A stretch of DNA of 64,000 bases from Vigna angularis (Eukaryota; Streptophyta; Magnoliopsida; Fabales; Fabaceae): contig NC_068975.1 of the NCBI RefSeq assembly GCF_016808095.1, forward strand, positions 24,311,501 through 24,375,500, read 5' to 3'. The translations under genes and the position numbers were made by a program. Every line of letters starts with the position of its first letter. Position 1 is the first letter of the stretch. This document shows, one piece after another, positions 7,974 through 62,364 of the stretch. The notes beneath the pieces are model-generated. The model was not told where the DNA came from. It saw only the letters and a list, made by a program, of their open reading frames with translations, and did not search any database.

Positions 7974-9542
7974 TCAGGTGGCCGAAACAAGAAGCCTCTT
8001 GTTTCCTCTGAAAGCCTGCCTAAGTATATCATACTTATTTCTGTAATGCTCAAGTGAGAAGCATAGCTGCCTTATGGCCTCACGTTTCTCTTCAGCTCCA
8101 CCTAATATCTCAACCCTTTGCCTCTCAATCTCTTCCTCTAGGATCTTACCTCTTGATCTTAGTTCTTCCACTTCTTTATGAGCCTCTTCAATCTCATTAT
8201 CTCTTGATTCTATCACTTTCTTAAGTGAACCAACTTCTGCACTCAGGTTATCTCTCTCTAATTTCAAACACTCACCACTTTCAATATTTCCTTTTAGCCT
8301 CTCTCCCATCTCTATTTTTTCAGACTGGATTCTTTTTATCTCTGCTTCTAAACATTGGCATTGACATTCCCATTCTTTCATCTTCTGCTCTAAAAGAGTC
8401 TTTTCTCCCAGCAACTTGGCTATTTCAGACTTCAAACTTGATCTCTCAAAGAACATTTTCTGTTGTACATCAGACAGAAGAGCTTTTAAATCCCCGACCT
8501 CATGATCCCGGTCTGCTACATTGGTTCTCATCTTTGCATGCCTTTCTAGGAGTCTTGAGTTTTCTCTTTTCTGAGCGTTGAACTTCATTTTCCAAGAAGC
8601 AACGTCCTTCTCAGCCACCTCAAGCTGTTCCTGCAATTGCTGAATAGTTTCAAACGTTTTAGTAGCCCCAAATTTCAAAGAAACAATTTGCATTTCTGCA
8701 GACTCAAGTTTTTCATTGGTCATCCTTAGCTCCTCCCCAAGTTTCTTCAACTCCAAGGATTCCTCTCCCATCCTTACCCCTTCTACAGATGAAGATAATC
8801 CAACGTCACCCTTCAAATTCTCCTTTGATCTGTATATTTCAAGCTCATTCTTCAGCATACTAATCTCCCCTTCAGAAAGCCTCAACTTCTCATTCACATT
8901 CCGTAGTTCCTGTTCATATGCATTGATCCTGGCACGAAAATCCTCAGCATTTTTCACACGTTCCTCCTCATTGAACAGTTTTTCTTTCCCCTCAGATGGT
9001 ATCTCAATCTCCAATTCCATCACCCTTCTGCTCATACCATTCTGATCATTTCCATTCCCAAAGAATCCTGAAAAGCTGTTCATAGAAGAGCTATCATCAT
9101 AATAATCCTCATCAGATTCTGTCAAAGTAGAAGAACCATCTCCATCCTTTGGACATGCATCAAAACCATTCACGTTCCCACCAGAACCTAGAAAGACATC
9201 GAACCCCGCGGCACGGTTGGGGGATAAGCGACGCCCCATCTTCCTCGGAGAGGGAGAAGGCATGCTAGAAGGTGGCTCAGAACCACAATCTGAAACACCA
9301 GAAGCTTGTGATTGAAGATCACACGGTGTGGAACTGTGTTCATAACGTTCAACCAAAGATTTGTAGCCACGGTAGAACTCTTCAACAAGAGAGATCAACT
9401 CTGGCCTCTTCTTGTAATACATCTCAGCCTTTTGGGCAAAGGAATCTCCGCTATCTTCAATCAGCTTCTGCATTTGCCTCACGTTGCGTTCCATCTCTGT
9501 GGTTAAGGATCGTTTTGTCATGTTTTTCATGATCATTCGCAA
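7974..9542 (-). CDS. NET4B: NETWORKED 4-type (KIP1-like) coiled-coil protein with incomplete NAB domain
   Basis: NET proteins link actin filaments to membranes through an N-terminal NAB domain. This 522-residue frame retains the second half of NAB (residues about 17-70, with DSFAQKAEMYYKKRPEL and LVEEFYRGYKSLVERY). A Ser/Pro/acidic linker follows (about 70-170), then a long coiled coil (about 175-510). The C-terminus (KREAIRQLCFSLEHYR) is the NET4 signature. The usual N-terminal Trp-rich block (WWWDSH type) is absent: MTKRS, which in relatives precedes it, here joins almost directly to TEMERNV. A possible splice acceptor (AG at 9497-9498) precedes AGATGGAACGC, so exon 2 could start at 9496 with a distant exon 1. 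I found no Trp-triplet codons on the minus strand up to about 11 kb. The start used is the first in-frame Met cluster. Confidence 0.85.
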   Translation of the reverse strand: MRMIMKNMTKRSLTTEMERNVRQMQKLIEDSGDSFAQKAEMYYKKRPELISLVEEFYRGYKSLVERYEHSSTPCDLQSQASGVSDCGSEPPSSMPSPSPRKMGRRLSPNRAAGFDVFLGSGGNVNGFDACPKDGDGSSTLTESDEDYYDDSSSMNSFSGFFGNGNDQNGMSRRVMELEIEIPSEGKEKLFNEEERVKNAEDFRARINAYEQELRNVNEKLRLSEGEISMLKNELEIYRSKENLKGDVGLSSSVEGVRMGEESLELKKLGEELRMTNEKLESAEMQIVSLKFGATKTFETIQQLQEQLEVAEKDVASWKMKFNAQKRENSRLLERHAKMRTNVADRDHEVGDLKALLSDVQQKMFFERSSLKSEIAKLLGEKTLLEQKMKEWECQCQCLEAEIKRIQSEKIEMGERLKGNIESGECLKLERDNLSAEVGSLKKVIESRDNEIEEAHKEVEELRSRGKILEEEIERQRVEILGGAEEKREAIRQLCFSLEHYRNKYDILRQAFRGNKRLLVSAT

Positions 9543-11021
9543 GGAGGAAAGTATGTAATGTATAAACGATTATGGAATAAGATTATCTTGCTTTGAGATT
9601 TGGATGAGAAACCTATGACAAACGAATGGAAAAAACAAGATTCAAACAACCCTTCCCAACTTTTGCAGTGCAAACAAAAGTTGGGAATGGTGAACCCCTT
9701 TTATGTCCAGTATGTTTTTTGAGGAACAGTATTGAAAGAAGACGTTATAACATGACGCCAACGTTATTTTTTGTTTTCTTGTTTTATCTTTTCCTTGTTT
9801 AGAATGTGGTAGTGCCCTTAACCTTGTTAAAGCTAGCTACAAAATGTCTGTTTCGAAGAACAGAAGATATGATTATGTTGTTAACAATAACCTTTTGCTT
9901 CGTTAATTATCACACACACAGATAGATTTAATTAAGGAATTCCACTGCTACATTTCTAACAACCATTTCTTAATATTTGCTGTGAGCTTCATGGACTTCA
10001 ATACTAATAGTAAATGTAGCAAAATATTCCATTTTGTTAATTTTCTTGCTTATCATAAATGACATGTATTTTCAAAATAAAAGGTAAAATATATTTTTAG
10101 TTCGCATTTGAAACGAAATTAAAATTTATTTTTATTTCAAAATTTTATTACATTTTGTTCTCAAATTTAAAAAAAATAAATAAATATAATAATATTAATA
10201 TTTTTAACATGTCAAATATATTTTAAGCGTAAACATGTTTCTATTTTAATATCAGTCAAAAATATCATTTAACAAGTAAAAAAAATAGTTATTAAATTAA
10301 AATAACTATATCCATTTACTTTTAAAATTTAAATATTAAAATATATCATAATTTAAAACATTAAAGATAATTCCATAACAACTAATAACATATTTAATTA
10401 AATAATAATATAACATAACATGCAATTTTTATTTTGATTTAAGTAATTAAAGGTATTAAATGAATTTGTTCATTATTTTAACTATATTAATGTAGTAAAA
10501 AGTCACCAATCCTATCAAAAATTAATATGGGTGTGGTCAAGTTATTAAGTTGACAACTTTTTAATTACTTATATATAGAACATAATTAAGTGATATTTAA
10601 TAAAGTTGTAATTATATTTATTTTAAATATATTTAGCAAAAGATGAATAATTATTTACCCGACATTATATTTTTGCTTTTTTCTTTATTTTGCTTTTGAC
10701 GATGATAAAAAAAGCAGATGACAAGATTATTCCAATTGTAATTTGCATTACATACTTCTAAGATTTTCTGAATGCCACTTAGAAGTCTTGGACCTGATGA
10801 GTCTGCTCCACATCCAAGACTGCAACGTTTTTGATTCCATCTTTCACTTATTTCTTGGACTCAATCTGAAAATGAAAAACAAAAGATATGTTATTGTACT
10901 TTGTTTGAGAGATATCTTTTTTTTCTTTTTTAAAACATATTATATAATTGATATGACTTTCCTCGATGAATTGTGATGATAGATATTCGAGTCAATTATA
11001 TTTATTTAGTTTATTTTTAAT
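9543..11021. other. AT-rich intergenic DNA
   Basis: This probably includes the NET promoter and 5' leader next to 9543. No confident TATA box, ORF or RNA gene was seen. Patches near 10080-10160 resemble common dispersed AT-rich repeats of legumes, which is an impression and not a match. Confidence 0.5.
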
Positions 11022-34959: not shown

Positions 34960-37900
34960 TCATATGTATATTCCCTCATCATGATCTGACCGAATTGCAT
35001 GTAAATCATCGTCAACTAGAGATTGGTCATCCAAATTTGTTGTAGTTTGAAATGAATGGTTGTCAGCAATATAAATATTAATCAGATTGTCTTCGTTAAC
35101 TTCAATTTGTTTTTTGCCTTGAAGAGCAACATACCAATGGTCAGACGCAGTATCTTTGACATAAAAAACTTGAGATGCTTGATGAACCATGATAAACGGT
35201 TCGTCTCGGTAACCCACCTTGCGAAAATCAACCAGTGTCATACCCGAGTCATCTATTTTCACACCACTCTTATTGTCAAACCACTTACACTTGAACAATG
35301 GAACAAAAAACTTGGTGTAATCAACCTCCCATATCTCTTCTATTATACCATAATATCTAATTGATCCAAGTACAGGAGATTGATCTTTTGATGTGGAAAA
35401 TTGAAGTGACTCAGCTTCTAAACTGATTCCACTATTTTGTACTGTGCTTTTATCATCCAAAGTCTTCGTATAGAATGTGCAATTATTGACTTCATAACCT
35501 GTACAACACACGACATCAAACTTCAAACCATTTGCAAGCCACAATAAAGTTTCAGAAGAATGTGGCTCTTTGTCAATTTCAGATTTGAACCAAGACATAA
35601 ATGTTTTGTTATGCTCCATCAATTGCCATTTCTCTGATTGTCTTGGATTTTTATTCTTAACAATGGCTTTGTGTGCTTCCAAAAAAGGGATCACCTCATC
35701 TGTGTTGTTCAATATATAAAGATGCGCTTGCAACAATTCTTCGCGATCTTTTGTCACCACATTGACACCTCGGATGCTTTTACTTGTAGAAAATTTATTC
35801 AACCATGCTGTGCGAGGAACTCCTATTGGATTCGTTGATGTCATGTAATCTGAACAAAACTCGATACTTTCTTCAGCAATATACCTTTCAATCATCGAAC
35901 CTTCAGGACGATATGGATTTTTAACGTACCCTTTCAAAATCTTCATATAACGCTCAATAGGATACATCCATCTTAAGTATACCGGTCCGCACAACTTGAT
36001 TTCTCTAACCAAATGAACAAGTAAATGTACCATGATGTCAAAAAAAGATGGAGGGAAAAACATCTCTAGTTGACACAAGATGATAACTATCTCGCCTTGA
36101 AGTTCATCTAACTTTGTAGGATCGATGGCTTTACTACATATTGACGAAAACCATGAACACAACCTGTTTATGGTGTGCCTAACATTTTTGGGCAAAATTC
36201 CACGAATAGCCACCGGTAACAACTGTTGCATTAAGACGTGACAATCGTGAGACTTCATGCCAACAAGCTTTAAGTCCTGCATTGACACTAAACTCTTCAT
36301 ATTTGAAGAGTATCCTTGTGGTACTTTGATACTCTTTAAACATACACAAAAACTTATCTTCTCTTGTTTAGACATTGTGTAACATGCAGGGGGCAAATAA
36401 GTACGTTTACCAATCTCCTTGGGTGCCAACTCTTCTCGGATATTCATGTCAACCAAATCCAAACGAGCATTCACTCCATCTTTTGTCTTTCCCTGAATGT
36501 TGAGTAATGTACCAATCAAGCTATCACACACATTCTTTTCTACATGCATCACATCTATGCAATGTCGAACATCTAACTTTGACCAATATGGAAGATCAAA
36601 GAATATTGATTTCTTCTTCCAAGGGGTCGTTACAGATGACTTCTTCGATGTTTTCCCAAATACATGATGTATTTTATTAACTTTTTCAAGAACTTGAAGG
36701 CCAGTAAGTGGATTTGGTGCTTCGTCCCTCTCTTGATCTCCATTGAATGCTTTTTTTAACCTTCGATATGGATGATTACGTTCTAGAAATCTCCGATGAC
36801 GTAGATACACCGTCTTTCTTCCATGTTTCAATTGATGAGCTGCAGTGTTTTCTTCACATATAGGACACGCTTTATGACCCTTGACACTGTATCCTGACAA
36901 ATTACCATAAGCAGGAAAGTCATTAATGGTGCAAAATAACATTGCACGCATCATAAAAGTCTCTGAAGCGAATGCATCAAATATTTCAACCCCATCAACC
37001 CACAAAACCTTCAAGTCTTCAACTAGTGGGCTTAGATAAACATCTATGTCATTTCCAGGCTGCTTTGGACCAGATATCATCATAGACAACATCATGTACT
37101 TCCTCTTCATGCACAATGCAGGAGATAAGTTGTAAATTATCAATATAACTGGCCAACAACTGTGATTGGTACTCAGATTACCAAATGGGTTCATTCCATC
37201 AGTGGCTAAACCAAGCCTAAGATTTCTACACTCTTTACCAAATTCGGGGAATTGTCGATCAATATTTTTCCATTGCTTTGAATCAGCTGGATGACGAAGC
37301 AGCCCGTCAATTTTTCTCTCATCTGCTTGCCATCTAAGATTTTTAGCATCTTTGGGATTCGCAAACAAACGCTTAAGTCTGGGCACTATTGGAAGGTACC
37401 AAACTACTTTCAAAACAGATCCATTTTTTTCTATCTGACCATTATCTTCACTATTGTTTTTTGACTTGTATCGTGATAAGCCACATTTTGGACACTTTGT
37501 CAAAAATTCAAACTCTTTCCTATACAAAATGCAGTCATTGGGACAAGCATGTATCCTTTTATACTCCATACCCATTGGACAAAGAATTTTCTTCGCATCA
37601 TAATTACGAGTGGGCAGTGTATTTCCATCTGGCAACATTTCATTCAACAACGTCAACAGTTCTGTAAAACTCTTATCAGTACATCCATTGCTCGCCTTCA
37701 AATTCATCAGCCTTAACACCGCTGACAAACGTGTGAACTTAGTTGAACCGACATACAAAGGTGTTTCCGCATCAGTCGACATCGTCTCATACACATGAGC
37801 TTTGGCAAAATTTTCTGCTCCAACATCGCGGATCATGTCCTCCAATTTGTCTTCATCCGGTCGATCTTCTTCGATGGTGGAATCAGTAACATTTACACTT

Positions 37901-42049: not shown

Positions 42050-42874
42050 TTAATTTGGCCACGTCAGGAACTCGTCCGGGTCAAACTCGCCGAACTCTTC
42101 CTTCGCGTAGCGCTGATTCAGCACGCCCATGTTAACATCCGTCAGACTAAACGGCGCATCGATGTCAAACCCGAATGCATCGACCTCGCCGTAACGGAAA
42201 CCGTCGAACGGCGAGGAGTCTCCGTCGCAGTATGTGAGGACAGACGTCGGCGACGCGAAACCGTCGCCGGAACAGGCCGCCTCCGGGGGTGAAACGTGGA
42301 GTTCTCTTTTTCCGTTAGCGGCGACGGGGAAGTTGGTGACGGCGTCAGGCCCCTTGAGCTTCACGGCGGCCTCGTCGTACACGGCGGCGGCTTCCTCCGC
42401 CGTGTCGAAGGTACCGAGCCAGACCCGTTTTCTTTGGGTCGGGTCGCGGATCTCGGCGGTCCATCGTCCCCATGGTCTCTGCCGGACACCTCGGAACTTG
42501 TTCCGGCGGCGAGGGGCGGCGGGCCGCTTCTCGGGTTGGGTAAAAGGGGTGGGGTTGGTGGAAAAAGAAGGGGTTATCGTTGGGGGTTCCGGGATAAAGG
42601 GAAAGTTTATAGTGATGTGGGTGATTTCTCTTTTCACTTTTTTGTGTTTAGATGGGCTTTTGGGGCCGTCGTCGTCGCCGGAGGATTCGGAGTCGGTGGC
42701 GTCGTGGTCGGTGAGGATGACCCGGAGGAGCTTCTTGTGCGGTGGTTGGGGGTTTTTGGGGGGTTTGCATGGTGGGTGGGTGTAAAAATTAGAGCTTGAG
42801 GTTGGTGGGTTGAAGGGGTGGGAGAGATTCATGGTTGGTTGGAGGGACATGAAAGGTTGGTTTGTGTCACTCAT
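42050..42874 (-). CDS. PTI6: ERF transcription factor of the Pti6/cytokinin-response-factor group
   Basis: This is a single-exon protein of 274 residues acting in the nucleus on GCC-box-type promoters. A CRF-type motif [18 protein letters not shown] lies at residues about 51-68, with a basic KHKKVKRE stretch after it. The AP2/ERF domain lies at about 124-182 ([20 protein letters not shown], then [14 protein letters not shown] and GPDAVTNFP), with the Ala/Asp positions of the ERF type substituted as in Pti6 (RWTAEIRD). The acidic tail [12 protein letters not shown] and [13 protein letters not shown] resembles Pti6. The domain is complete and unbroken. The coding region is GC-rich against an AT-rich background, as usual for intronless ERFs. 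The start chosen is the first Met, preceded by a plausible leader. Confidence 0.93.
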
Positions 42875-43171
42875 GTTAAGAAAGAGAATGAAGAAAGGGA
42901 AAAGGTGATGGTTTTAATTGCATGAAGGAAGAGTGAAAAAGGAAAGAGGGAGGTTTTGGGTGGTTATTCCAAAGGGTAAGGAAGAGAGAGAGAGAAGATG
43001 TTGTTAGAGAGGTTGGCGGGAAAGAGGCGAAGAGTGTGGAGAGAAGGAAGCAAGGTGAGTGAAGTAGGATTAAAGGGTATTTATGGTGCAGCACGGGGTG
43101 TGTCCCCATTGGAGGATGAACCAAATATTTTTCTCGTGAAGGTCAGGGATTTCATTTCGGTAACCAATTGA

Positions 43172-46984: not shown

Positions 46985-47638
46985 ACGGCCTATCCCACTT
47001 AGAAGGTAGATTCCTACCAATACAACCGGGTATTAAAGTTTCCATGTCTTCAAGGCAAAAACTGGGATTTCCATAAATAGAAGTTGCCATTTCCCATGAG
47101 ACTTCCACAGGATCAGCCATTCCTGCACATTGTTGCCTGTCCTAGTGGCCAAAAAAGCTTCAAGACTAGGGGGCTCCAAATTAGTAACAACAAGCCCTGG
47201 AGGTAAAGTTGTAATAGCAGAACAACTCTTCACTGATCATTTGAACTGTGAAAAATGAAAAATCAGGTGAATACAATCAAAGTCTGAAATGAAAGCTCAA
47301 GTTTGTTGGCGTACTCTCCCCCACATGACAGCACCTGAAAGTATCCATAGTAACAAGGAGTCAGCTTGGAGGCTGACCACACAAGAGACAGATTGTTGTC
47401 TATGAGGAGAAAGCTTCACAATTATCCAATCTCCAAGAGGATAAGTAACATGTCTCCGGCGAGCATCAACATATTTCTTCATTGTTTGCTAAGCACGATA
47501 CAAATGAAATTTGAGTTGGCAAAAAGCCTCATCGCAGTCCATAGCTACATATACCATTGTGAATTTGCTCTGAAGCAAAGCAACAAGGAAGGTGACTACA
47601 ATGGATAGATAACCAAACAAAGGAAATTTTCTTTGCAA
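46985..47638 (-). mobile_element. Ty3/gypsy pol relic, left half (integrase C-terminus)
   Basis: On the minus strand a broken frame gives MKKYVDARRRHVTYPLGDW followed by KLSPHRQ. This is the integrase C-terminal block of chromovirus-like gypsy elements. It is followed by a frame with LPPGL and WLILWKS resembling the pol end. It joins in order with the right half at 62512-63070, showing one relic cut by a later insertion. It has multiple stops. Confidence 0.78.
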
Positions 47639-48477
47639 AGTAACACTCTCGAATCCAAGATATCTCAAGTTGGGGGTTAGTGTGTTGTATAAGACCAAAA
47701 TAATGTCGTCAACTCAAGATGACATTGCAACAGAGGCATCTCAGTCATGACAACAATATGCACCTCGACCCTAATAGCATCCCAAAACAAGATTAATATG
47801 GTTGATTGAGAATTAGACAACAAGTCAGGTTTGAAAAACCCTAAACAACCAAGGAAAGGCACTCACCTACATAATCTAGGCCTATCCCAGTAAAAGCCCA
47901 CAGAGGTACTATAAATAACATTGTTCACAAGGTAAGAATAACATATTCAATATAGCATTTATTGCTTTCATACACACATACAGTGTTGGAGTGTCTTTAC
48001 AGATAACCCGACCATTCGAACATTGGAAGGCATGAATAGAATGAACATTTCAACCTTTGCAGTAAGATAACTAGATATATCTCAGATTGAGAAGAAGATA
48101 GTTGAGTAGTGTTTCCTATGGACGTGTCTTATGAGTATATTTCGGCTCAATAAAAACATTTGACATCCACCATGAGATTGATATATATCTAGACTACATG
48201 GTGTTCACTAGAAATATGACAAACAAGCAATCCGTACCAAAACCATCTAGTAACAAGATAACTCTGATGTTAGAACTCCAAAAAGAGTTGTTAGAGTTGG
48301 TGAAGCACTACGTTGAAGAAATGGTCAACCTTGGAGAAGAAAATGCACGTATGCAGAGAAAGTGAGTAGAAGCCAGTCAACATAAAATAGAGACCAAAGT
48401 AGGCAGCACTCAACATACTAACCCGACAATGAGCACCATGATGACAGCCTCAAGTACACATTGGAATCCCTTTGTGG

Positions 48478-51403: not shown

Positions 51404-51668
51404 AATGAACCCCTATTTTATAGACACTTGGACAAGCCCTCTCATTTACTCTGCACAATCCTGAACCATTAGATCCTTTCAAATCCAATGACTACAACAC
51501 ATGACCCTTGCCCTTTCCAAGCAAGGGTCATCTTTGACAACCCTTCACATCATTCATCAAGTCTTTTCGTCGCCACGTTCCTTGAGATTAGGGGATACTA
51601 TGTCTATAACAGCAGATAACCAATGTAACACTCTCAAATCCAACATATCTCAAGCTTAGGGGGCTTAG

Positions 51669-54027
51669 TGATACGACTGTCGCGGTCATACAAATTTGAT
51701 GTGCAAAAATTAATGCAGTATAACTAGGAAGTGACTCCTAGGTCGTCTCTCGAAGACCAAATTGGGTTCGGTTCAATCTCAGATCTAACATGAAGTGGGG
51801 GGGTTTTTGTAGATGTTTTGTGCGGTAAAATAAATTAAAATTAAAAACAACAGTGCAGAAAACGTAAATGACAGGAATGAAGAAAATACAGAAAAACGGT
51901 AAATTTGGGAAAACGGTAAAAATGGAATTTAACTTTATAAATTGGAAATGAAATTTTGACAGAATTAAAATGCAAAGCTAAAATTCAACAGAAAATGAAA
52001 GTAATTGCATCCAAAATATAAAATTAAAAACAGAATTGTAAATGAACTGTAATAGGTAGATGAAAATAGAATTCAACAACATCAATTGAGAAATGCAGAA
52101 TGAAAATTATGATTAACATTCAACTTGAAACTGGAAATTAAAGAAACACAACCTCCCCAAAGGGGAGGAGAAAACCAAAGCCAGAATGTAAATTGCTTCC
52201 TAATTCCTACTCCTAAAATCTAATGCATTTCTCCTTTGCTGCCCATTCCATTTTATAGCCAGAATTCTGAACGTGAATTGCTGGCCTCCCAAACCCGTGA
52301 GTTTCCAGTAAAAACCGTGACCTTCTTTTGATTCAATGTGGTCCCCTCCAAAATGCTGCTGCCCAAGCTGCTTGATTGTGCAGGCCGTGATTGTGGCTTC
52401 TTCATCCACCTCCATATTTGTTGCCAACTTCTCTGCAGATGGGGAACCCTTTCTCACTTCCATGTTGTCCATCACGTGCACATCCATTCTCTGAACATTC
52501 CAGTCATCACCACCTTTTTGCTGCTGGTCTGCTTCCGTGAAGACCACTGCTACTGGCTGGACAATGCATCTACATGTATGTGGCTCTTCATTTCTTGCTG
52601 ACAATCCTTCATGCTGGACTTTGGTTATCACGCTTCCAGCTCTGGAACGCTACCTACGTGATGCTGCTGTTGGACGAGCCAAGTGTGGCTGCTGCACGTT
52701 CTCTATTGTGAAGGCTACAGCTGCTGGACAAAGATCTCTTCTTTACTGGGTGCATGAATGAAGCGCTACTGCACCTTGGCTGGCCGTGAGCTTCTCAAAG
52801 CTTCATTGCTGGTCCGTAAATCTCCAAGAGAATTCTCCCGTGACAGTTACAGCCCATAATTCAGCATATCTTACATTTGAATATAATATGAAATGTGACT
52901 TTGGTCGTGTGGTTCTGGTCTCTCCTTCAATGGTGGTGGCCCTTCCTTCTTTTATGTTGTCTCCCACTAAGAGAAATAAGCCTCCCATATTGCCGAATTG
53001 GTTTACATGTGAAAATGAGTCACCAAGGCCACCCAATAAATTAGCATATGTTTCTCCCAACAAAAGTAAATGGCAGTGGCTTTCCATTGGATAACCATGT
53101 GTAGTATTTCTTCCTTCAAAATCATGGACCCATATTTATTTGGACAGCCGTGTGCTTCTTAACAAGTGTGGCCCCTCCATTATGTTTCATCAATTGGCAA
53201 AGAATGAATAGGCTTTTAGCATGAATTGGCCGTGTGATTTTTGGTTGCAGTAATGGCACTACAAAATCAACACCTCATTACAAAATATAATCTAAGGTAA
53301 AACTTTGCAAAATAGAATTTCCAATGGGTCCTAGGCCGTGTGGTGTATATGTGGGTTCCAAGTTTTGCTTCTAAATGATCAATTCCAACCATCACAATTG
53401 CTAAACAATAAGCAAACAATGCAAATATATTAGAGCACTCAAACAGTAATCACTGAACTGACATAGGATAGTAAAATAAATACTGGGAACAGCACACAAT
53501 GAATTTGAACAAAGTAAAAACTATACGTGAAAATAGACATCCAGACGAAACTATGAAAAAAAATTGCATGCAAAACGGATAAGAATTGAACTCAAACGAA
53601 GACACACAAGTTGACACAACATTCACGCAGCACTGGTAATCGTTTACAGCACTCCTGTAAACGATTACCCGAGAGGAATTGCTAATTTGTACAGAAAGTC
53701 CAACACAGGTACTCAGTCAGGTGAACACAGGTCACCATTGGCAAAAAAACTGACTTTTAGGCACTTCTGCCCCTGTAAACAATTACCCGAGAGGAATTGG
53801 GAATTTGTACAGAAAGTCTAAATGTCCAAAAATATTTTCCAAAATTTTTCATGCACTCAATAATGTAAATAATTCGTTTCAGATAATTCAAATTAATTAA
53901 AATAAGAATTTCTGATCGGATTAGGCTCAATTCAGTAAAATGGGAAAATACTGGACAATTAAGCACAATTCCCTGATTAATTCTAGCACAATAAACTAAA
54001 TGAAGTGAATAAAATAATGATTCATCA
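51669..54027 (-). repeat. 3' LTR of the WOX-carrying retrotransposon
   Basis: On the element strand it starts TGATGAATCATT and ends CGACAGTCGTATCA. A TATA box (GGCTATAAAATGG on the minus strand, about 52250-52257) predicts transcription start near 52220. The LTR therefore divides into a long U3 of about 1.8 kb and an R/U5 of about 0.55 kb. A 143-codon open frame at 52631-52200 is identical in both LTRs but resembles no known protein. Confidence 0.93.
53635..53669. repeat. Perfect 14-bp-stem inverted repeat in U3 (copy at 61503-61537)
   Basis: GGTAATCGTTTACA and TGTAAACGATTACC flank a 7-base loop. In the other LTR the stem is the same and the loop differs by one base. The neighbouring phrase TTACCCGAGAGGAATTG recurs about 118 bp away in each LTR. 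Confidence 0.93.
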
Positions 54028-55493
54028 AAATAGACCACACTTAGTCTTTTGCACTCCTGGGCAAAATTAAGACGCAAATCAGGGAATAATTCAAAGGACT
54101 TCAAAGGAGTGACACAAATGCAACATACAGAAAAATAAAGACTCACGAGAAAAATAAACAGGATTTACAAAGTTCTCAAGAAGTCTGGACAGAGAAAAGA
54201 AGTAGACAATATCCAACACATAGTCAAGAAAAGCACATACTTACAGAAATCATCCAAGCATTTCACAGTATGGCAAAATAATTAATCAGCTCAAGAGGTG
54301 ATTTAAAAGTAACATAACTTCACATATGCACTAATAGTGTTTCTCTCAAGTGTTTAAGGTAAATAATTTCAACTCAATGTACTCAAGAAAACAAACACAA
54401 GTAGACTTGGCAAGCTTCTAATATCAATACTTAAAACATATGCATGTTCATATCAAAAGGTCTTTACTGGGTTGTAATGGGGCCAAGGACAGGGGAGGAT
54501 AAATTTGGATAAGTAGCTATAGCTCAGAAGAAATAGAGGTGCACTAGGGAAAAAAAATGTAAACACAGTGAAATCTCACCCAAAAACCTCTAATTCAATG
54601 CTCTTCTCGACTCCATTATTCACAGAATTATTTTTCAATTTTTTTTTCTCTTTTTCTCATCAATTTTTTTTTTATCCTGTCTCTTTTTTTTTTCTCACAC
54701 AACAGGATATAAATTATCATTTCAAAACATGATGAGGAACCAACTAGCCAATTCATCAGAATTCCCAAGGAGACCACACTTATTCACAAAATACTTCTAT
54801 AGCTCTAGACTTTCCTAAGGTTAAGGTAATAATTTGTTTTTCACTTAGGATCAGTGTATGAGCTTCAACACAAAGAAATATATACAGTATAGGCTCAAAG
54901 GGCTTATCAAAGGATAATAACAAGGTAGGCTTATTTGGCTAAAGAGGCTCAAGAACAAAAATGCCTTTATCACGTCTGAACATGCATATCAATCAAGTAT
55001 ATCAAAAAGAATCAAGCCAAGGCATATGTGCAAGCATTCAAGATACATATCACACACAAGAAAGAAAATTAAGTGGCTCAAATCTCACACAGGGTATTCG
55101 TCACAATGAAATCAACCTCTCAAACGTATAATCATCTTTCCAGACAGAGAAAAGCAAGGATTACAAACTATAAGTAATAAGTAAGTGAAGGAAAAATCTA
55201 CAATTAAGACATCATCCAGAAATCAAGAGAAAAATGTAAAATTTATTGCACACAAAACTCGATAAAAATAACTTAAAATAGAAAAAAATAACACTCAAAA
55301 ACAAAAAAATTAACACACAAAATACATACTAACAAAAACTAACAGAAAAATCAGAATTTCCCCCCAGTAGACCACACTTAAATCACACAATGTCCTCAGT
55401 GTGTTACAATCATCAGATTATCAAATTCAAAGCAGTCAAATAATATAGACAAGTGCAATAAAAGGTAAGGAAAAAATGGGAAGAAATTTAGTA
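54028..55493 (-). other. 3' internal untranslated region of the retrotransposon
   Basis: No coding region is seen. The stretch next to the 3' LTR (complement of 54028-54046, GACTAAGTGTGGTCTATTT) occupies the polypurine-tract position. A near-copy of it, GTGTGGTCTACTGGGGGG on the minus strand, lies at about 55371-55388. Confidence 0.65.
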
Positions 55494-55572
55494 ACATCCA
55501 TCAGTAGATGTTATCAATGACATCCATCAGCAGATGTCTAAATCACCTAGTACCCATCAGTAGATGCTATTT
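55494..55572. repeat. Three short repeats of a CCATCAGTAGATG unit
   Basis: The phrases ACATCCATCAGTAGATGT, ACATCCATCAGCAGATGT and ACCCATCAGTAGATGC are spaced about 30 bp apart. Each is an imperfect palindrome (ACATC...GATGT). They lie just upstream of the WOX promoter. Confidence 0.8.
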
Positions 55573-55664
55573 TTTTTTTTTTTGAAAAAGGAGATGACCG
55601 GCACTGTGACAATAGTTTCGGTGGAAACGACCGGAACTGTTGCTACAGTGGCAGAAATTTTGGC

Positions 55665-55672
55665 TATAAAAG
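55665..55672 (+). promoter_or_regulatory. TATA box of the antisense WOX gene
   Basis: TATAAAAG lies within TTTGGCTATAAAAGGG, followed about 30 bp later by a CT-rich leader-like sequence typical of plant 5' UTRs. The strand is opposite to the retrotransposon gag. Confidence 0.75.
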
Positions 55673-55694
55673 GGTACCTCCTCAGCGTCGAGCA

Positions 55695-55863
55695 ACATTT
55701 CTGACTTCTCACTCTCTCTGCTCTTTTCTTCTCTCTATACTCCTCTCTCTATTCCTCTCTCTTCTCCTCTGAGCGTTTGGAGCCTGCGCAGAGCCTCTGC
55801 CACCGCGCCTTCTAAAGAGTCTGAGATCAGCGAGGAGCTCCTCTGCTAACCCTACTTCTCCAG
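55695..55863 (+). other. 5'-UTR exon of the WOX gene
   Basis: The exon is CT-rich and ends CTCCAG|GTAAGT, a consensus donor. It is separated from the coding exon by an intron (55864-56512) ending in TTTATGTTTTAG. The transcription start is estimated from the TATA box. Confidence 0.6.
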
Positions 55864-56515
55864 GTAAGTCCTCGACACCTTCCTTCTTTCCTTCATGTAA
55901 TTTCTTTCCATACTCCCCTTTAAGCTTTTCCTGCCTGTTCCCTTCCTTTATGCACTTCGTTCTTCTTTATTTTCTGCCTTTTTATTTTCCATTTCCTGCT
56001 TTCCTTTATTTGTTTTCTTTGTCCTGCTTCTTTCTTTCCTGCTCTCCCTCTCCCTTTTCCTGCTTCTATCTTCTCCTGTTCAATTTTTTTTTTCTGAAAC
56101 TGAAAACACTTAAACACATAAAACACAACTGTCTTAAAACTTAAGGGGTATATCGGCTGGAAACCAGACGTTAATCTCCCTTCGTTCGAAGGTATGACAG
56201 AGAGAATCGGGTAGAACAACGCCACGTACCCCACTTAAAACTAAATAAAACACAGAAACATAATATACAAGAACAATAAGGACAAGGACAATTGGACGTA
56301 GATCCGTTTAGGACCCTTTTGCAAGGACCGTGAAACAGATCTGAGACCAAATACAGAAACAATCAAAGATAGACAGGACAAATAAATCTAAAAGGAAACA
56401 AGAACAAATAAAGAAAACACTCAACTAAGAATCTAATATTTTTTTCTTTTATGCATTTTATTTTTCTGTTTATTTTATTTTTTATTTTTTATTGTTTTTT
56501 TTTATGTTTTAGAAT

Positions 56516-57055
56516 ATGATGAGCGAGATGGAAATCGAGAGATACACCAGTCAGCGGTGGCGTCCAACAGATGATCAGGTCAAGATGATGACCAACATCT
56601 TCAACTATGGGGTCACTCATCCAAGCCGAGCGCAAGTCGTCGAGATCACGTCTCGACTAAGGACCTACGGAGATGCCAGCGAATACAACGTGCACTGCTG
56701 GTTCAACAATCACGGCAATCGGGTCAGGCGCTGGCAAGCGGAGATAGACCCCACTGGCACTCAGTTTTCACAACTGCCGCTGTACATGTACGGTAAGAGC
56801 TCTCATCAGATCTCACTTTTTATTGAATTTTTTTTTTTTTTATTATTATTAACATGAAATTTTTTTTGTTTGAAAGAATATGGCTGGGTGGTAATGAGGG
56901 CACCGAGGCTGTTGGACCTCTTCCCCATTCCCATCATAATCGACCCAGAAACAGAGATTCCTCCGCCTCCGCTCGTGACTTTTCGTACCAGAGCTCCCTC
57001 AACGGAGCTCTCCCTTAGACCACCACAACCAGCTCGAGAATTCTTCCATTTTTAG
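56516..57055 (+). CDS. WUSCHEL-type (WOX) homeodomain protein carried by the retrotransposon
   Basis: Coding exons 56516-56792 and 56877-57055 join by GT-AG to give 151 residues. Residues about 12-74 form a WUS-type homeodomain: RWRPTDDQ in helix 1, then P-SRAQVVEITSRLRTYG, then NVHCWFNNHGNR in the recognition helix. The invariant Trp, Phe and Asn of helix 3 are present, but the usual WFQNHKAR is WFNNHGNR. Residues 104-111, LLDLFPIP, resemble the WUS box (TLDLFPxx), and STELSLRPP near the end recalls an EAR-like repressor motif. The protein is shorter than typical WUS-clade members. The coding region is GC-richer than its surroundings and has no stop or frameshift. WOX proteins regulate stem-cell transcription in the nucleus. 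The homology is clear to me by motif; the function of this copy is unknown. Confidence 0.85.
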
Positions 57056-57751
57056 TGTTTTATGTTTTTTTTTTTTTTTTTTTTTTTATTATTATTAAGT
57101 TTTTGCTGGCCGAGTGTGGCCAGAATAAAGGCTGTAATATGAACACTTATTTTTTTTATGTTTTTATGTTTTTATGTTTTTTTTTTTTTTTATTATATGG
57201 CTTGTAATATTAACGATCAGAAATGATCGACCCCCGAACATCTTTTTATTAAGTTTTTATGCATTTTATATTTATTATCAATGTAAGACAGAATGCTTTC
57301 GGTGTAAGGTTTTTTCAATAAATGCACTCAAATGAATATCTCTGCTCAAACTACACCTCTCTGCCATTACATGTTAATACTGCACTTGCGTTGTTTTTTT
57401 TTTTTTTTTTTTTTTTTAACAAAAACTAAATAAATAAATAAAACAGAACACAAATTAACAAAACAAAAGACCTAATATCGAACACAAAAAATCAAAGCAC
57501 ACAAAACGTAATGTCAAAAACAGCAGACAAAAAAAAAACATATTTACAATACATACATTAACAAAATAACACACCTGAAAGAGAACACACAAATTTTTTT
57601 ATTTTTTTATTTTATTTTATTTATTTATTATTTTTTTATTTTATTTTTTTTTTTTTTAAAAAAAAAAATCATAAACTAAGAAAATCAGAATTCTCCCCTA
57701 ATTCGCAAACCAAGAAAATTAAGGGAAGAATGAACAGGAAAACTCCCCTGG
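57056..57751. other. Homopolymer-rich spacer between WOX gene and gag
   Basis: The spacer contains T runs of about 23-28 near 57066-57090 and 57394-57417, and mixed T/A runs at 57595-57670. No protein is seen. It is the 3' flank of both convergent genes. Confidence 0.7.
57124..57129 (+). terminator. Polyadenylation signal of the WOX gene
   Basis: AATAAA lies 69 bp after the stop codon, with a second AATAAA near 57318. Long T runs lie between the stop and the signal. Confidence 0.55.
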
Positions 57752-59050
57752 TTATGGTGGCAGTTGCCAAACTTGGACAAGCAGGGAGATGTTCTTCGCC
57801 TCAGGATCCAGCAAAGAAAATTTGGGGAAGAACTGCTTCATCAATATTTTTCTCTTAGCAATTTGTTTCAGCAGTATCTCTCCTTCCACTAGCATTTGTT
57901 TAGTGTGTGACACCGGAATAGCTATCTCTGGCTCGCTCAAAGAAGTAGCAGTATACTCTTCTTCATCAATCATTAATTTCTTAATGTCAGCATCTGCATT
58001 TTCTTTTAACTCTGCATCCTTATCATCAAACTCACAATTAATATCACCTGTTATAAACTTAGAGTTTGGCTGTAATGCATAACCAATTTCAGCACAAATG
58101 GAGCAAGAACCAGATTCACAGTCACATTCAAAATTTTCAGAAAACTGTGTTAAATCAAAGTTTAGTCCTAACTCCATAAAGTCATTAGATTGCACAGTTT
58201 CTCTTTCAAAATCAATATTGACGCGACTTTTACCAATGGGTTCAATGGATGACACTGATTTAAAAATTTTAGATTGGTCAGTCGAATTTGTATCAATATC
58301 AGTCATAAACCCTATAGAATCAATGTGCGTCAAATCACATGCATTTGAATGTGTAGGCAAATCAGGTAAAATTGGAATCTCAGGTTCAGAATAAACCTGT
58401 TTTTGCTCACTGAGAAATTTCTTACCAAACTCCAAGTTATCAGCCGCATCCTCAGGGCTATCAGTGTCAGAATCCAGAACAAGCTGCTCAGGTTCTTCCT
58501 TTGCTACCTCAATTGGACTTTCACCAGCCAGCTTGCAAAGCAACTTCCTCGCTTCTGTTGGGGTTATATCCATCCAACATCCACCAATAGCTGCATCCAC
58601 AAGTATCCTTTGATTGTCCAGGAGCCCTTCATAAAAATAAGTCAAGAGCAAATGCTCTGGAATTTGGTGGTTTGGACAAGTTGTGCAGAGCCTGTTAAAC
58701 CTCTCCCAATAATCTGCCAGGCTTTCTTCTTGAAACTGCTCAATGGCAGTGATCTTCATCCTAATACTGGTCACCTTTGCTGCTGGAAAGAACTTGTCGA
58801 AGAATTTTTGTTGTGTTTCCTGCCAACTATTAAAAGGATACTGGTATATGAACCAGTCTCTTGCTTCATCTTGAAGGGACATGGGAAACATTTTTATCAA
58901 CACTGTTTCCTTTGAAACACCAGCAGGCCTCATAGACAAACACACCAAGCTAAACTCCTTGAGGTGCCTGTATGGATCTTCATGTGCCAACCCAAGGAAT
59001 TTGGGAAGACACTTGACTAAATCATACATCCAGTCTTGAGAATCTGTCAT
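57752..59050 (-). CDS. Retrotransposon Gag protein (intact ORF, 432 codons)
   Basis: This is the structural protein of retroelement virus-like particles. The Retrotrans_gag-type domain spans about residues 15-190, with FLGLAHEDPYRHLKEF, MFPMSLQDEARDWF, FFDKFFPAAKV, ESLADYWERFNRLC and FYEGL in the expected order. The C-terminal half is acidic and unlike a protease. No zinc knuckle or pol motifs follow. The reading frame is unbroken, consistent with a recent insertion. It resembles Athila-like gag in style, but I assign the lineage only tentatively. Confidence 0.88.
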   Translation of the reverse strand: MTDSQDWMYDLVKCLPKFLGLAHEDPYRHLKEFSLVCLSMRPAGVSKETVLIKMFPMSLQDEARDWFIYQYPFNSWQETQQKFFDKFFPAAKVTSIRMKITAIEQFQEESLADYWERFNRLCTTCPNHQIPEHLLLTYFYEGLLDNQRILVDAAIGGCWMDITPTEARKLLCKLAGESPIEVAKEEPEQLVLDSDTDSPEDAADNLEFGKKFLSEQKQVYSEPEIPILPDLPTHSNACDLTHIDSIGFMTDIDTNSTDQSKIFKSVSSIEPIGKSRVNIDFERETVQSNDFMELGLNFDLTQFSENFECDCESGSCSICAEIGYALQPNSKFITGDINCEFDDKDAELKENADADIKKLMIDEEEYTATSLSEPEIAIPVSHTKQMLVEGEILLKQIAKRKILMKQFFPKFSLLDPEAKNISLLVQVWQLPP

Positions 59051-59511
59051 TTTCTCTATTCTAGTTCAAAACCTATCTCAGACCTGGACTTTCACTTCAA
59101 GCAAGGATTATAAAAAATATACAGAAGCATAACATGGAGTAAAACAAGTATTTACATCAATTGAAACTTCCAAAAACAATCACTAAACAAAACACAACAC
59201 ATTTATACATGCTACAGGCACACACAAAACAGAACATAAATATTTTTTTTTTTAATTTTTTTTTAAATTAACATACATAATACAAAACACAACACAATAA
59301 AAATATAAAAGACAAAACATATATTACAACCACGTAATAAAACAAAAACAGTAAAAATCAAAAACAAGAACCTGGACTGAAGTGACAACGCCGCCAAAAT
59401 TTGCTGAAGGTGTCGTTGTCGCCTACAAAATATACAAGACAAAACACACAAAACAAACATATTAACAAAACAAAAATTTACACAACAAAAATCTAAAACC
59501 AAACCTCCATT

Positions 59512-59532
59512 GGTCCCCGGCAGCGGCGCCAA
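59512..59532 (-). other. Primer-binding site of the WOX-carrying retrotransposon
   Basis: On the minus strand, four bases inside the 5' LTR, the sequence TTGGCGCCGCTGCCGGGGAC begins with the TGG expected to pair with a tRNA 3' CCA. It fixes the element orientation as minus. The tRNA identity is not assigned. Confidence 0.85.
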
Positions 59533-59536
59533 AATT

Positions 59537-61895
59537 TGATACGACTGTCGCGGTCATACAAATTTGATGTGCAAAAATTAATGCAGTATAACTAGGAAGT
59601 GACTCCTAGGTCGTCTCTCGAAGACCAAATTGGGTTCGGTTCAATCTCAGATCTAACATGAAGTGGGGGGGGTTTTGTAGATGTTTTGTGCGGTAAAATA
59701 AATTAAAATTAAAAACAACAGTGCAGAAAACGTAAATGACAGGAATGAAGAAAATACAGAAAAACGGTAAATTTGGGAAAACGGTAAAAATGGAATTTAA
59801 CTTTATAAATTGGAAATGAAATTTTGACAGAATTAAAATGCAAAGCTAAAATTCAACAGAAAATGAAAGTAATTGCATCCAAAATATAAAATTAAAAACA
59901 GAATTGTAAATGAACTGTAATAGGTAGATGAAAATAGAATTCAACAACATCAATTGAGAAATGCAGAATGAAAATTATGATTAACATTCAACTTGAAACT
60001 GGAAATTAAAGAAACACAACCTCCCCAAAGGGGAGGAGAAAACCAAAGCCAGAATGTAAATTGCTTCCTAATTCCTACTCCTAAAATCTAATGCATTTCT
60101 CCTTTGCTGCCCATTCCATTTTATAGCCAGAATTCTGAACGTGAATTGCTGGCCTCCCAAACCCGTGAGTTTCCAGTAAAAACCGTGACCTTCTTTTGAT
60201 TCAATGTGGTCCCCTCCAAAATGCTGCTGCCCAAGCTGCTTGATTGTGCAGGCCGTGATTGTGGCTTCTTCATCCACCTCCATATTTGTTGCCAACTTCT
60301 CTGCAGATGGGGAACCCTTTCTCACTTCCATGTTGTCCATCACGTGCACATCCATTCTCTGAACATTCCAGTCATCACCACCTTTTTGCTGCTGGTCTGC
60401 TTCCGTGAAGACCACTGCTACTGGCTGGACAATGCATCTACATGTATGTGGCTCTTCATTTCTTGCTGACAATCCTTCATGCTGGACTTTGGTTATCACG
60501 CTTCCAGCTCTGGAACGCTACCTACGTGATGCTGCTGTTGGACGAGCCAAGTGTGGCTGCTGCACGTTCTCTATTGTGAAGGCTACAGCTGCTGGACAAA
60601 GATCTCTTCTTTACTGGGTGCATGAATGAAGCGCTACTGCACCTTGGCTGGCCGTGAGCTTCTCAAAGCTTCATTGCTGGTCCGTAAATCTCCAAGAGAA
60701 TTCTCCCGTGACAGTTACAGCCCATAATTCAGCATATCTTACATTTGAATATAATATGAAATGTGACTTTGGTCGTGTGGTTCTGGTCTCTCCTTCAATG
60801 GTGGTGGCCCTTCCTTCTTTTATGTTGTCTCCCACTAAGAGAAATAAGCCTCCCATATTGCCGAATTGGTTTACATGTGAAAATGAGTCACCAAGGCCAC
60901 CCAATAAATTAGCATATGTTTCTCCCAACAAAAGTAAATGGCAGTGGCTTTCCATTGGATAACCATGTGTAGTATTTCTTCCTTCAAAATCATGGACCCA
61001 TATTTATTTGGACAGCCGTGTGCTTCTTAACAAGTGTGGCCCCTCCATTATGTTTCATCAATTGGCAAAGAATGAATAGGCTTTTAGCATGAATTGGCCG
61101 TGTGATTTTTGGTTGCAGTAATGGCACTACAAAATCAACACCTCATTACAAAATATAATCTAAGGTAAAACTTTGCAAAATAGAATTTCCAATGGGTCCT
61201 AGGCCGTGTGGTGTATATGTGGGTTCCAAGTTTTGCTTCTAAATGATCAATTCCAACCATCACAATTGCTAAACAATAAGCAAACAATGCAAATATATTA
61301 GAGCACTCAAACAGTAATCACTGAACTGACATAGGATAGTAAAATAAATACTGGGAACAGCACACAATGAATTTGAACAAAGTAAAAACTATACGTGAAA
61401 ATAGACATCCAGACGAAACTATGAAAAAAAATTGCATGCAAAACGGATAAGAATTGAACTCAAACGAAGACACACAAGTTGACACAACATTCACGCAGCA
61501 CTGGTAATCGTTTACAACACTCCTGTAAACGATTACCCGAGAGGAATTGCTAATTTGTACAGAAAGTCCAACACAGGTACTCAGTCAGGTGAACACAGGT
61601 CACCATTGGCAAAAAAACTGACTTTTAGGCACTTCTGCCCCTGTAAACAATTACCCGAGAGGAATTGGGAATTTGTACAGAAAGTCTAAATGTCCAAAAA
61701 TATTTTCCAAAATTTTTCATGCACTCAATAATGTAAATAATTCGTTTCAGATAATTCAAATTAATTAAAATAAGAATTTCTGATCGGATTAGGCTCAATT
61801 CAGTAAAATGGGAAAATACTGGACAATTAAGCACAATTCCCTGATTAATTCTAGCACAATAAACTAAATGAAGTGAATAAAATAATGATTCATCA
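59537..61895 (-). repeat. 5' LTR of the WOX-carrying retrotransposon
   Basis: This is the same length as the 3' LTR and almost identical to it. It carries the promoter for gag, with a TATA box (TATAAAAT on the minus strand) at about 60118-60125. It abuts the CTTAG target duplication at 61896-61900. Confidence 0.94.
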
Positions 61896-62094
61896 CTTAG
61901 TGTGTTGTATGAGGCCGATACGATATCGTCAACCCAAGACTACATCACCTCAGCACAAATATCTCAATCATAATAACAATATGCACCTTGGCCCTGTCAA
62001 CATCCCAAAACAATATTAATGTGGTTAATCAAGGATTAGATAAACAAGCTAGGTTAAGAAAACTCCTAAACCACCTAGGAAAGGCCCTAACCTA

Positions 62095-62364
62095 CATAAT
62101 CTAGGCTTATCCAGGTAAAAGCTCACATAGGTAAGCATAAAGTATTTAAGATAGTATTTATTGCTTTCTTAGCACATACTTAACTTAGAATGTCTTTGCA
62201 GACATCCTAGACATTCAAACATTCGACAACATAATCTAGGCTCATCGCGGTAAAATCTCACATAGGTAAGCATAAAGTATTTAATATAGTATTTATTGCT
62301 TTCTTAGCACATACTTAACTTAAAGTGTCTTTGCAGACATCCTGGACGTTCAAACACTGGACAG
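62095..62364. repeat. 135-bp tandem duplication in LTR B of the old element
   Basis: Units 62095-62229 and 62230-62364 both begin CATAATCTAGGCT and share GGTAAGCATAAAGTATTTAA and TGTCTTTGCAGACATCCT. LTR A has a single diverged copy, so the duplication arose after insertion. Confidence 0.88.

What the first reader, a model, noticed from the sequence alone, without database searches (positions are those of the whole stretch)
51669..61895. LTR retrotransposon that carries a WUSCHEL-type homeobox gene in place of pol
A structurally complete element (TSD, LTRs, PBS, gag) has no recognisable pol but holds an antisense, intact WOX-like gene. Retroelement capture of a WUS-clade regulator, with its promoter and introns kept, would make a developmental transcription factor mobile. 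Gene capture by LTR elements usually goes through spliced RNA in sense orientation, so retained introns in antisense fit the element being packaged as genomic RNA with the gene silent on that strand.
Basis: partly seen in the sequence, partly recalled or inferred. Interest (0 to 1): 0.95.

Follow-up and report, generated by a model that had tools for sequence, protein, structure and literature searches.

The report
Retrotransposon carrying a WUSCHEL-like homeobox gene
A young jumping element in a bean genome has no copying enzyme of its own but carries, on its opposite strand, a complete gene for a DNA-binding protein related to WUSCHEL, the plant stem-cell regulator, and close relatives of that gene are annotated many times over in adzuki bean.

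Summary
Window 51669-61895 is a complete LTR retrotransposon on the minus strand: 5-bp TSD, 2359-bp LTRs differing at 2 positions, PBS-like site and one 437-aa gag ORF, with no pol domain found. A related repeat lacking the insertion lies at 47636-47908. Antisense to gag sits a gene with a TATA box, a predicted 5'-UTR intron, two coding exons and an intact 151-aa frame: a homeodomain whose best PDB matches are WUSCHEL and STENOFOLIA, then WUS-box-like and EAR-like motifs. It is not a one-off: one search returned 65 protein clusters (270 member sequences), all named Vigna angularis; a profile search added deeper branches, V. radiata and V. umbellata included. In one annotation, 3 of 7 chromosomally placed gag-like genes lie within two gene numbers of a homologue. 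Kept base-reading residues and mostly conservative substitutions indicate protein-level constraint. Best reading: a non-autonomous, probably Athila-lineage family acquired a WOX-type gene as DNA and keeps it as an antisense accessory regulator. Not shown: transcription, function, the donor WOX, and LTR linkage in other copies (the genome server did not complete). Nine literature searches listed no report of it. New variant of a known kind: antisense extra genes in plant LTR elements.

The parts
51664..51668 (.). Target-site duplication, left copy (CTTAG)
   Evidence: empty related site
51669..54027 (-). 3' LTR of the element (2359 bp, TG...CA ends)
   Evidence: 2 mismatches to the other LTR
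54028..55490 (-). Spacer between antisense gene promoter and 3' LTR, no recognisable coding domain; possible PPT next to the LTR not clear
55499..55566 (+). Three copies of CATCAG(T/C)AGATG (55499, 55525, 55555) upstream of the TATA box; possible regulatory sites
   Evidence: 3 matches in the window, 0.01 expected; motif picked by eye beforehand
55660..55672 (+). TATA-box-like GGCTATAAAAGGG of the antisense gene
   Evidence: sequence; leader region matched by models P0050 and P0063 of other copies
55865..56513 (+). Predicted 5'-UTR intron (GTAAGT...TAG)
   Evidence: sequence; no RNA evidence
56516..56792 (+). Coding exon 1: WUS-type homeodomain
56793..56876 (+). Coding intron (GT-AG), kept in other copies
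   Evidence: 9 of 77 family models read into it, 25 of 77 show a splice-like junction here
56877..57055 (+). Coding exon 2: LLDLFPIP (WUS-box-like) and STELSLR (EAR-like), stop TAG
57752..59065 (-). Gag ORF, 437 aa, with capsid-type Retrotrans_gag domain at residues 58-149
59514..59531 (-). Primer-binding-site-like sequence, tRNA-Asp type (tRNA recalled)
59537..61895 (-). 5' LTR of the element (2359 bp)
61896..61900 (.). Target-site duplication, right copy (CTTAG)
47636..47908 (+). Related repeat without the insertion (empty site); not part of the element

Best explanation
This is one young copy of a non-autonomous Ty3/gypsy element, probably of the Athila lineage, that makes a Gag-type protein and borrows reverse transcriptase and integrase from an autonomous partner. 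Its ancestor acquired a WOX-type homeobox gene as DNA (promoter, 5'-UTR intron, coding intron) in antisense orientation. The introns survive transposition because the packaged RNA carries their complement, where splice sites are not read. The gene is transcribed from its own promoter towards gag and gives a small nuclear DNA-binding protein: a WUS-type homeodomain that keeps the base-reading residues, with WUS-box-like and EAR-like motifs for recruiting a co-repressor. It acts as an accessory regulator that favours the element, most likely by tuning transcription of element copies or of host genes in the cells where the element is active. Shown: structure, gene anatomy, homology, multiplicity, local linkage to gag-like genes, protein-level constraint. 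Inferred: acquisition as DNA, trans-mobilisation, expression, benefit to the element.
For: Element anatomy and intact TSD, empty site, gag, PBS (67), no pol in 27 of 27 internal ORFs. Homeodomain; AlphaFold model of the 97% identical P0001 has its 11 best PDB matches in WUS and STENOFOLIA homeodomains (49, 56; 3 matches with E up to 0.001). 65 clusters with 270 member sequences and at least 52 distinct LR48 locus tags of one annotation. Gag-like neighbours: P0095 next to P0027, P0091 two from P0036, P0090 two from P0059; 3 of 7 chromosomal gag-like tags, reached in 12 of 200000 permutations; P0059 belongs to the deep branch B, the other two to A. Of 68 family rows with a recognition helix, N90 is kept in 68, R94 in 66, R38-W39 in 64; these read bases in WUS (PMC7203112, passages). 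Substitutions against the window protein are more conservative than neutral simulations in 11 of 13 comparisons. Invariant STELSLR and LFP.P between branches A and B at about 51% identity. HD, WUS-box and EAR order is that of WUS (61).
Against: No RNA or protein evidence of expression. 2 of 13 comparisons look neutral (P0022 116 of 300, P0030 37 of 300 simulations reach the observed value), and all share one query. The LTR shows no convincing enrichment of WUS motifs (TGAATGA 1 vs 0.9, TTAATGG 0, TGAA 48 vs 40.6; TAAT 37 vs 28.4 and ACGTGA 4 vs 0.5 are nominal among 8 motifs tried); TGAA is depleted in the internal part. No homologous protein model matched LTR sequence, and the gag-like neighbours match only the C-terminal part of the gag ORF, not the capsid domain. 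The two-gene limit in the linkage test was set after seeing the tags. Many family models are broken: 9 of 77 lack the helix, and only 26 of 49 type A rows hold helix, FP[IV]P and S[TV]EL[ST]L together.
Confidence: 0.6

Rival explanations
1. Passenger: the WOX-type gene was captured and is only carried along; the copies multiply because the element does, and the protein has no role for the element.
For: No expression evidence; a share of copies is broken; 2 of 13 comparisons look neutral; no clear target motif in the LTR.
Against: Branches A, B and C keep homeodomain core, LFP.P and S[TV]EL across 37-54% identity, 11 of 13 comparisons are more conservative than neutral, and base-reading residues are kept in 64-68 of 68 rows.
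Confidence: 0.22
2. Antisense RNA device: what matters is the antisense transcript, which pairs with element RNA and tunes silencing or translation; the protein is secondary.
For: The transcript would run towards gag on the opposite strand; a dsRNA role for antisense genes of LTR elements is proposed in PMC7264820 (parts 1 and 2 of 3 read).
Against: An RNA role alone does not explain kept protein motifs and conservative substitutions; the coding part does not overlap gag.
Confidence: 0.1
3. Host gene family beside retroelements: the homologues are host WOX paralogues amplified by segmental or tandem duplication, and the window copy was enclosed by the element by chance.
For: Branch C models (P0071-P0076) have the more canonical TLDLFPIP box, and whether they lie in elements is unknown; only three loci show a gag-like neighbour, and those match only part of the ORF.
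Against: The window gene lies inside a TSD-bounded young element with an empty site; linkage recurs at three loci of two branches; locus tags are scattered over 10 of the numbered chromosomes plus scaffolds (tags).
Confidence: 0.06

Closest known systems
Antisense additional ORFs of plant Ty3/gypsy elements (Grande gene23, RIRE2, Retand TRP28, bean pvRetro ORF2); PMC7264820 parts 1-2 of 3, PMC11963269 and PMC4093653 passages
   Same: Extra gene antisense to gag-pol, towards the 3' LTR; own promoter in Grande; nuclear or DNA-binding protein suspected; family-wide rather than single-copy.
   Different: Those ORFs are described with TRP28, SMC-like or no known domain; here the cargo is a homeobox gene with introns, in an element without pol.
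Orchid Ty3/gypsy elements with an AlkB-type m6A demethylase, and the 121-genome screen in the same paper (PMC9289625; abstract, section 12 and term passages)
   Same: A host-type functional domain fixed in a plant LTR lineage of one genus; the screen also lists a B3 DNA-binding domain and a LONELY GUY-type domain.
   Different: The main text does not mention a homeobox or Vigna. The screen took reverse transcriptase as its marker, so elements without pol would be missed.
Athila-lineage elements with a LOGL4-like gene (Steinbauerova et al. 2011, abstract recalled; echoed in PMC9289625 section 12)
   Same: Athila-type element that took up a plant gene.
   Different: Different gene; no antisense intron-bearing transcription factor.
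WUSCHEL / WOX proteins (PMC7203112 passages)
   Same: Homeodomain fold, R38-W39, N90 and R94, then WUS-box-like and EAR-like motifs.
   Different: Helix WFNNHGNR instead of WFQNHKAR; Y86, Q89, K92 and A93 changed; very short protein; multicopy inside a mobile element.
HTLV-1 HBZ and other antisense retroviral regulators (named in PMC11963269 passages)
   Same: Antisense gene coding for a nuclear regulator.
   Different: Unrelated protein; here the gene derives from a host homeobox family and keeps introns.

Membership tests
LTR retrotransposon | Two near-identical LTRs with TG...CA ends and a short TSD | tested here: met
   empty site
LTR retrotransposon | PBS next to the 5' LTR | tested here: met
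   with a tRNA-Asp 3' end that I recalled; 5 bases from the LTR
LTR retrotransposon | Polypurine tract next to the 3' LTR | tested here: inconclusive
   The internal end reads ...AAGTGTGGTCTATTT, not a clean purine run
LTR retrotransposon, autonomous | Protease, reverse transcriptase, RNase H, integrase | tested here: not met
   27 of 27 internal ORFs of 60 aa or more without a pol domain; hence non-autonomous
Athila lineage | RT phylogeny | not testable with these tools
   No RT in the element. Lineage rests on gag relatives, tRNA-Asp-type PBS, and recalled Athila gag features; non-chromoviruses use tRNA-Asp among others and not tRNA-Met (PMC6317226 passages)
Athila lineage | Athila ORF-1 (PF03078) | tested here: not met
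   No such hit; only 16% of Athila elements have it (PMC6317226 passage), so it does not define the lineage
Antisense extra-ORF elements | Coding gene antisense to gag between the element's genes and the 3' LTR | tested here: met
Antisense extra-ORF elements of Retand/Ogre type | TRP28 or plant mobile domain | tested here: not met
   Only PF00046 in the antisense protein
WOX homeodomain proteins | WUS-type homeodomain by sequence and fold | tested here: met
   (the model is of P0001, 97% identical)
WOX homeodomain proteins | Base-reading R38, N90, R94 | tested here: met
   Present in the window protein; 64-68 of 68 family rows; roles from PMC7203112 passages
WOX homeodomain proteins | Canonical helix WFQNHKAR | tested here: inconclusive
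   Window has WFNNHGNR, branch B WFQNHGNR, branch C WFQNYGYR; usual among the WOX rows seen, not known to be strictly required
WUS / modern WOX clade | WUS-box followed by EAR motif | tested here: met
   LLDLFPIP (TLDLFPIP in branch C) and STELSLR; motif names from PMC7203112 and recall
WUS / modern WOX clade | Tree position inside a named WOX group | tested here: inconclusive
   The family forms its own clade (98/95) against 8 WOX references plus P0078 on long branches; pairwise scores do not single out a donor

The most novel reading that the evidence does not exclude
A plant retrotransposon family has made a stem-cell transcription factor its own: the antisense WUS-type protein is expressed in meristem or germline-precursor cells, where it changes the host or the element's own transcription so that new insertions reach the next generation, a plant counterpart of a retroviral regulator or oncogene taken from the host, with a recognition helix retuned through branches C, B and A.
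Probability: 0.25. Interest if true: 0.93.

Novelty: new variant of a known kind. Interest (0 to 1): 0.8.

Why it matters
Antisense extra genes of plant LTR elements have no settled origin or function. Here the cargo has a recognisable host ancestry, intact motifs with known biochemistry (DNA reading, co-repressor recruitment), many copies and a young insertion, so the question of what such genes do for an element becomes directly testable. It also shows a route by which an intron-bearing transcription-factor gene can be multiplied by reverse transcription, and warns that WOX gene lists for Vigna may contain element-borne copies: P0045, P0051, P0052, P0061, P0066, P0067, P0070, P0072 and P0073 carry WUSCHEL-related names in public records.

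Tried and rejected
Chance resemblance to a homeobox: rejected. Single accidental capture: rejected by multiplicity and linkage. LTRs as WUS targets: eight motifs tested against shuffles, nothing convincing. Donor WOX: not resolved. Relatives in viral contigs: one scan, 44 pattern matches, none confirmed. tRNA gene in the window to check the PBS: none found. LTR sequence inside homologous gene models: none in 100 proteins at E up to 1e-3. Whole-genome copies by the genome search 'own': the same request was sent 11 times, each time 'busy or cannot be reached'; so nothing is known of DNA copies. The second structure job, the pdb_via library and the genome-contig scan (prokaryotes) were not used.

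Limits of counts: member_sequences may count the same locus in several assemblies, so 270 is not a copy number; the 52 LR48 tags are cluster representatives of one annotation, a lower bound, and include branches A, B and C. Protein searches reach only relatives that share exact words, so the apparent restriction to Vigna is weak evidence. The helix-based types put P0068 and P0077 in B, while the tree joins them to A. The neutral simulation used 13 of 77 family rows, all against the window protein.
Full report
Observation. The element runs on the minus strand. Direct repeats of 2359 bp at 51669-54027 and 59537-61895 differ at two positions and are flanked by CTTAG on both sides. When the outer flanks are joined (TSD once), the result aligns across the junction to 47636-47908 at 78.6% over 281 columns, 48 of them left of the junction. 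So the element entered a repeat of which another copy stands empty. Two differences in 2359 sites mean a recent insertion: tens of thousands of years with commonly used plant rates, which I recall.

Internal part. Next to the 5' LTR is TGGCGCCGCTGCCGGGGA, one mismatch from the complement of a plant tRNA-Asp end (recalled). One long ORF, 57752-59065 minus, has Retrotrans_gag; its nearest full-length relative is P0085, 84% identical over 99%, named V. angularis. Its N-terminal part resembles gag proteins of Phaseolus, Sesamum and Abrus, and a short CDCESGSCSICAEI-type stretch also occurs in P0098 of Abrus, downstream of gag. I take the ORF to be gag fused to a remnant of the following region (inference). 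Of the 27 ORFs of 60 aa or more overlapping 54028-59536, none gave a pol domain.

The antisense gene. On the plus strand: GGCTATAAAAGGG at 55660, a CT-rich leader, a GTAAGT donor at 55865, an acceptor at 56513, then coding exons 56516-56792 and 56877-57055. The splice sites are predictions. Gene models of two other copies, P0063 and P0050, include translated pieces of the region 55648-56191. Nine of 77 family models read into an intron at the same place, including P0059, P0060 and P0066 of branch B, and 25 of 77 show a splice-like junction there. So intron and leader are present in other copies.

The protein. Pfam gives a homeodomain (E 2.6e-6), PDB sequence search WUSCHEL and STENOFOLIA (E 7.6e-11 and 1e-10). 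An AlphaFold model of P0001 (97% identical; mean pLDDT 65.8, about 85-94 per block over residues 21-70) has its 11 best Foldseek PDB matches in WUS or STENOFOLIA homeodomains, three with E up to 0.001. In WUS, R38, N90 and R94 (and partly Q89) read bases, and WUS-box and EAR motif follow at the C-terminus (PMC7203112, passages). The window protein keeps R38, W39, N90 and R94, changes Q89 to N, Y86 to C, K92 to G and A93 to N, and has LLDLFPIP and STELSLR. I expect a WUS-like core preference with altered flanks (inference).

The family. A search with the protein gave 65 clusters among 92 candidates, every row named Vigna angularis, 270 member sequences in all. A profile search gave 84 rows from 4430 candidates: besides V. 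angularis, P0067 of V. radiata, P0070 and P0073 of V. umbellata, the metagenomic P0078, and six WOX-type proteins of Lamiales, the named ones WOX2-like. The tree (42 rows) shows branch A with the window (18 rows, 100/98), branch B (9 rows, 95/87) and branch C (5 rows, 97/95), together set apart from the references (98/95); several rows have long branches. Of 77 family rows 68 have a recognition helix: N90 in 68, R94 in 66, R38-W39 in 64; position 89 is N in 48, Q in 19, other in 1. Nine rows lack the helix.

Linkage. Locus tags of the LR48 annotation give gene order. Nine gag-like hits have LR48 tags, seven on chromosomes; three of the seven lie one or two gene numbers from a homeobox tag (P0095 with P0027, P0091 with P0036, P0090 with P0059), a count reached in 12 of 200000 random placements. 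The two-gene limit was chosen after seeing the tags, chromosome lengths were taken from the largest tag seen, and the gag-like hits match only the C-terminal part of the gag ORF. P0095 also matches the leader between PBS and gag. No LTR match was found in 100 proteins. P0059 is a branch B protein, so linkage probably predates the A/B split.

Constraint. Against neutral simulations conditioned on an open frame, substitutions between the window protein and 13 chosen rows were more conservative in 11 (0-5 of 300 simulations reach the observed mean) and not in two (P0022 116, P0030 37 of 300). The comparisons share one query, and the four distant ones use local alignments that favour similar residues. 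LFP.P and STELSLR are invariant between A and B in the nine-row alignment.

Targets. Eight motifs were counted in LTR, internal part and the rest of the window. The LTR has no excess of TGAATGA or TTAATGG; TGAA is 48 against 40.6 (19 of 200 shuffles), TAAT 37 against 28.4 (6 of 200), ACGTGA 4 against 0.5 (1 of 200); TGAA is depleted in the internal part. I do not count this as support. Three CATCAG(T/C)AGATG copies stand 94-173 bp upstream of the TATA box and nowhere else in the window; I noticed the motif by eye first, so its statistics are post hoc. Autoregulation is one guess.

Mechanism. Mobilisation must come from a partner with pol. A small homeodomain protein with repressor-type motifs made from its own promoter would be an accessory regulator. 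Passenger status and an antisense-RNA role are rivals.

Literature. Nine searches (open PubMed Central papers only, at most 20 listed rows in most) listed no paper on a homeobox gene carried by an LTR element or on WOX multiplication in adzuki bean. The adzuki draft genome paper has no homeobox, WUSCHEL or WOX in its main text (PMC5389050, term search). Antisense extra ORFs are known (PMC7264820 parts 1-2 of 3, PMC11963269 and PMC4093653 passages). A screen of 121 angiosperm genomes for extra domains used reverse transcriptase as marker and does not mention a homeobox in the main text (PMC9289625, section 12 and term search). Hence new variant of a known kind.

Species. The window is probably V. 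angularis or a near relative: P0001 97% identical, and P0086 99% over 57% of gag, both named V. angularis. This is inference.

Noticed in passing
55499-55566: Three CATCAG(T/C)AGATG 12-mers upstream of the antisense TATA box, found nowhere else in the window; near-palindromic ends CATC...GATG.
   Followed up: partly
34960-37899: 979-aa open frame with Transposase_21, DUF4218 and DUF4216: a CACTA-type DNA transposon with a long intact transposase frame.
   Followed up: partly
42050-42913: Single-exon AP2/ERF gene, 287 aa, PF00847.
   Followed up: partly
7974-9569: 531-aa frame with KIP1-like (PF07765) and coiled coil, a NET-type actin-binding gene (name recalled).
   Followed up: partly
P0071-P0076 and P0078: A third branch with helix WFQNYGYR and a more canonical TLDLFPIP box, in V. 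angularis and V. umbellata; a metagenomic relative P0078 has WFQNYGFR. Whether these lie in elements or are host genes is unknown; they may show the donor.
   Followed up: partly
P0021, P0062: Models of other copies carry repeated glycine/tryptophan-rich N-terminal stretches, perhaps a minisatellite upstream of the gene in those copies.
   Followed up: no
62094-62363: 135-bp tandem duplication right of the element, part of the repeat into which it inserted.
   Followed up: no
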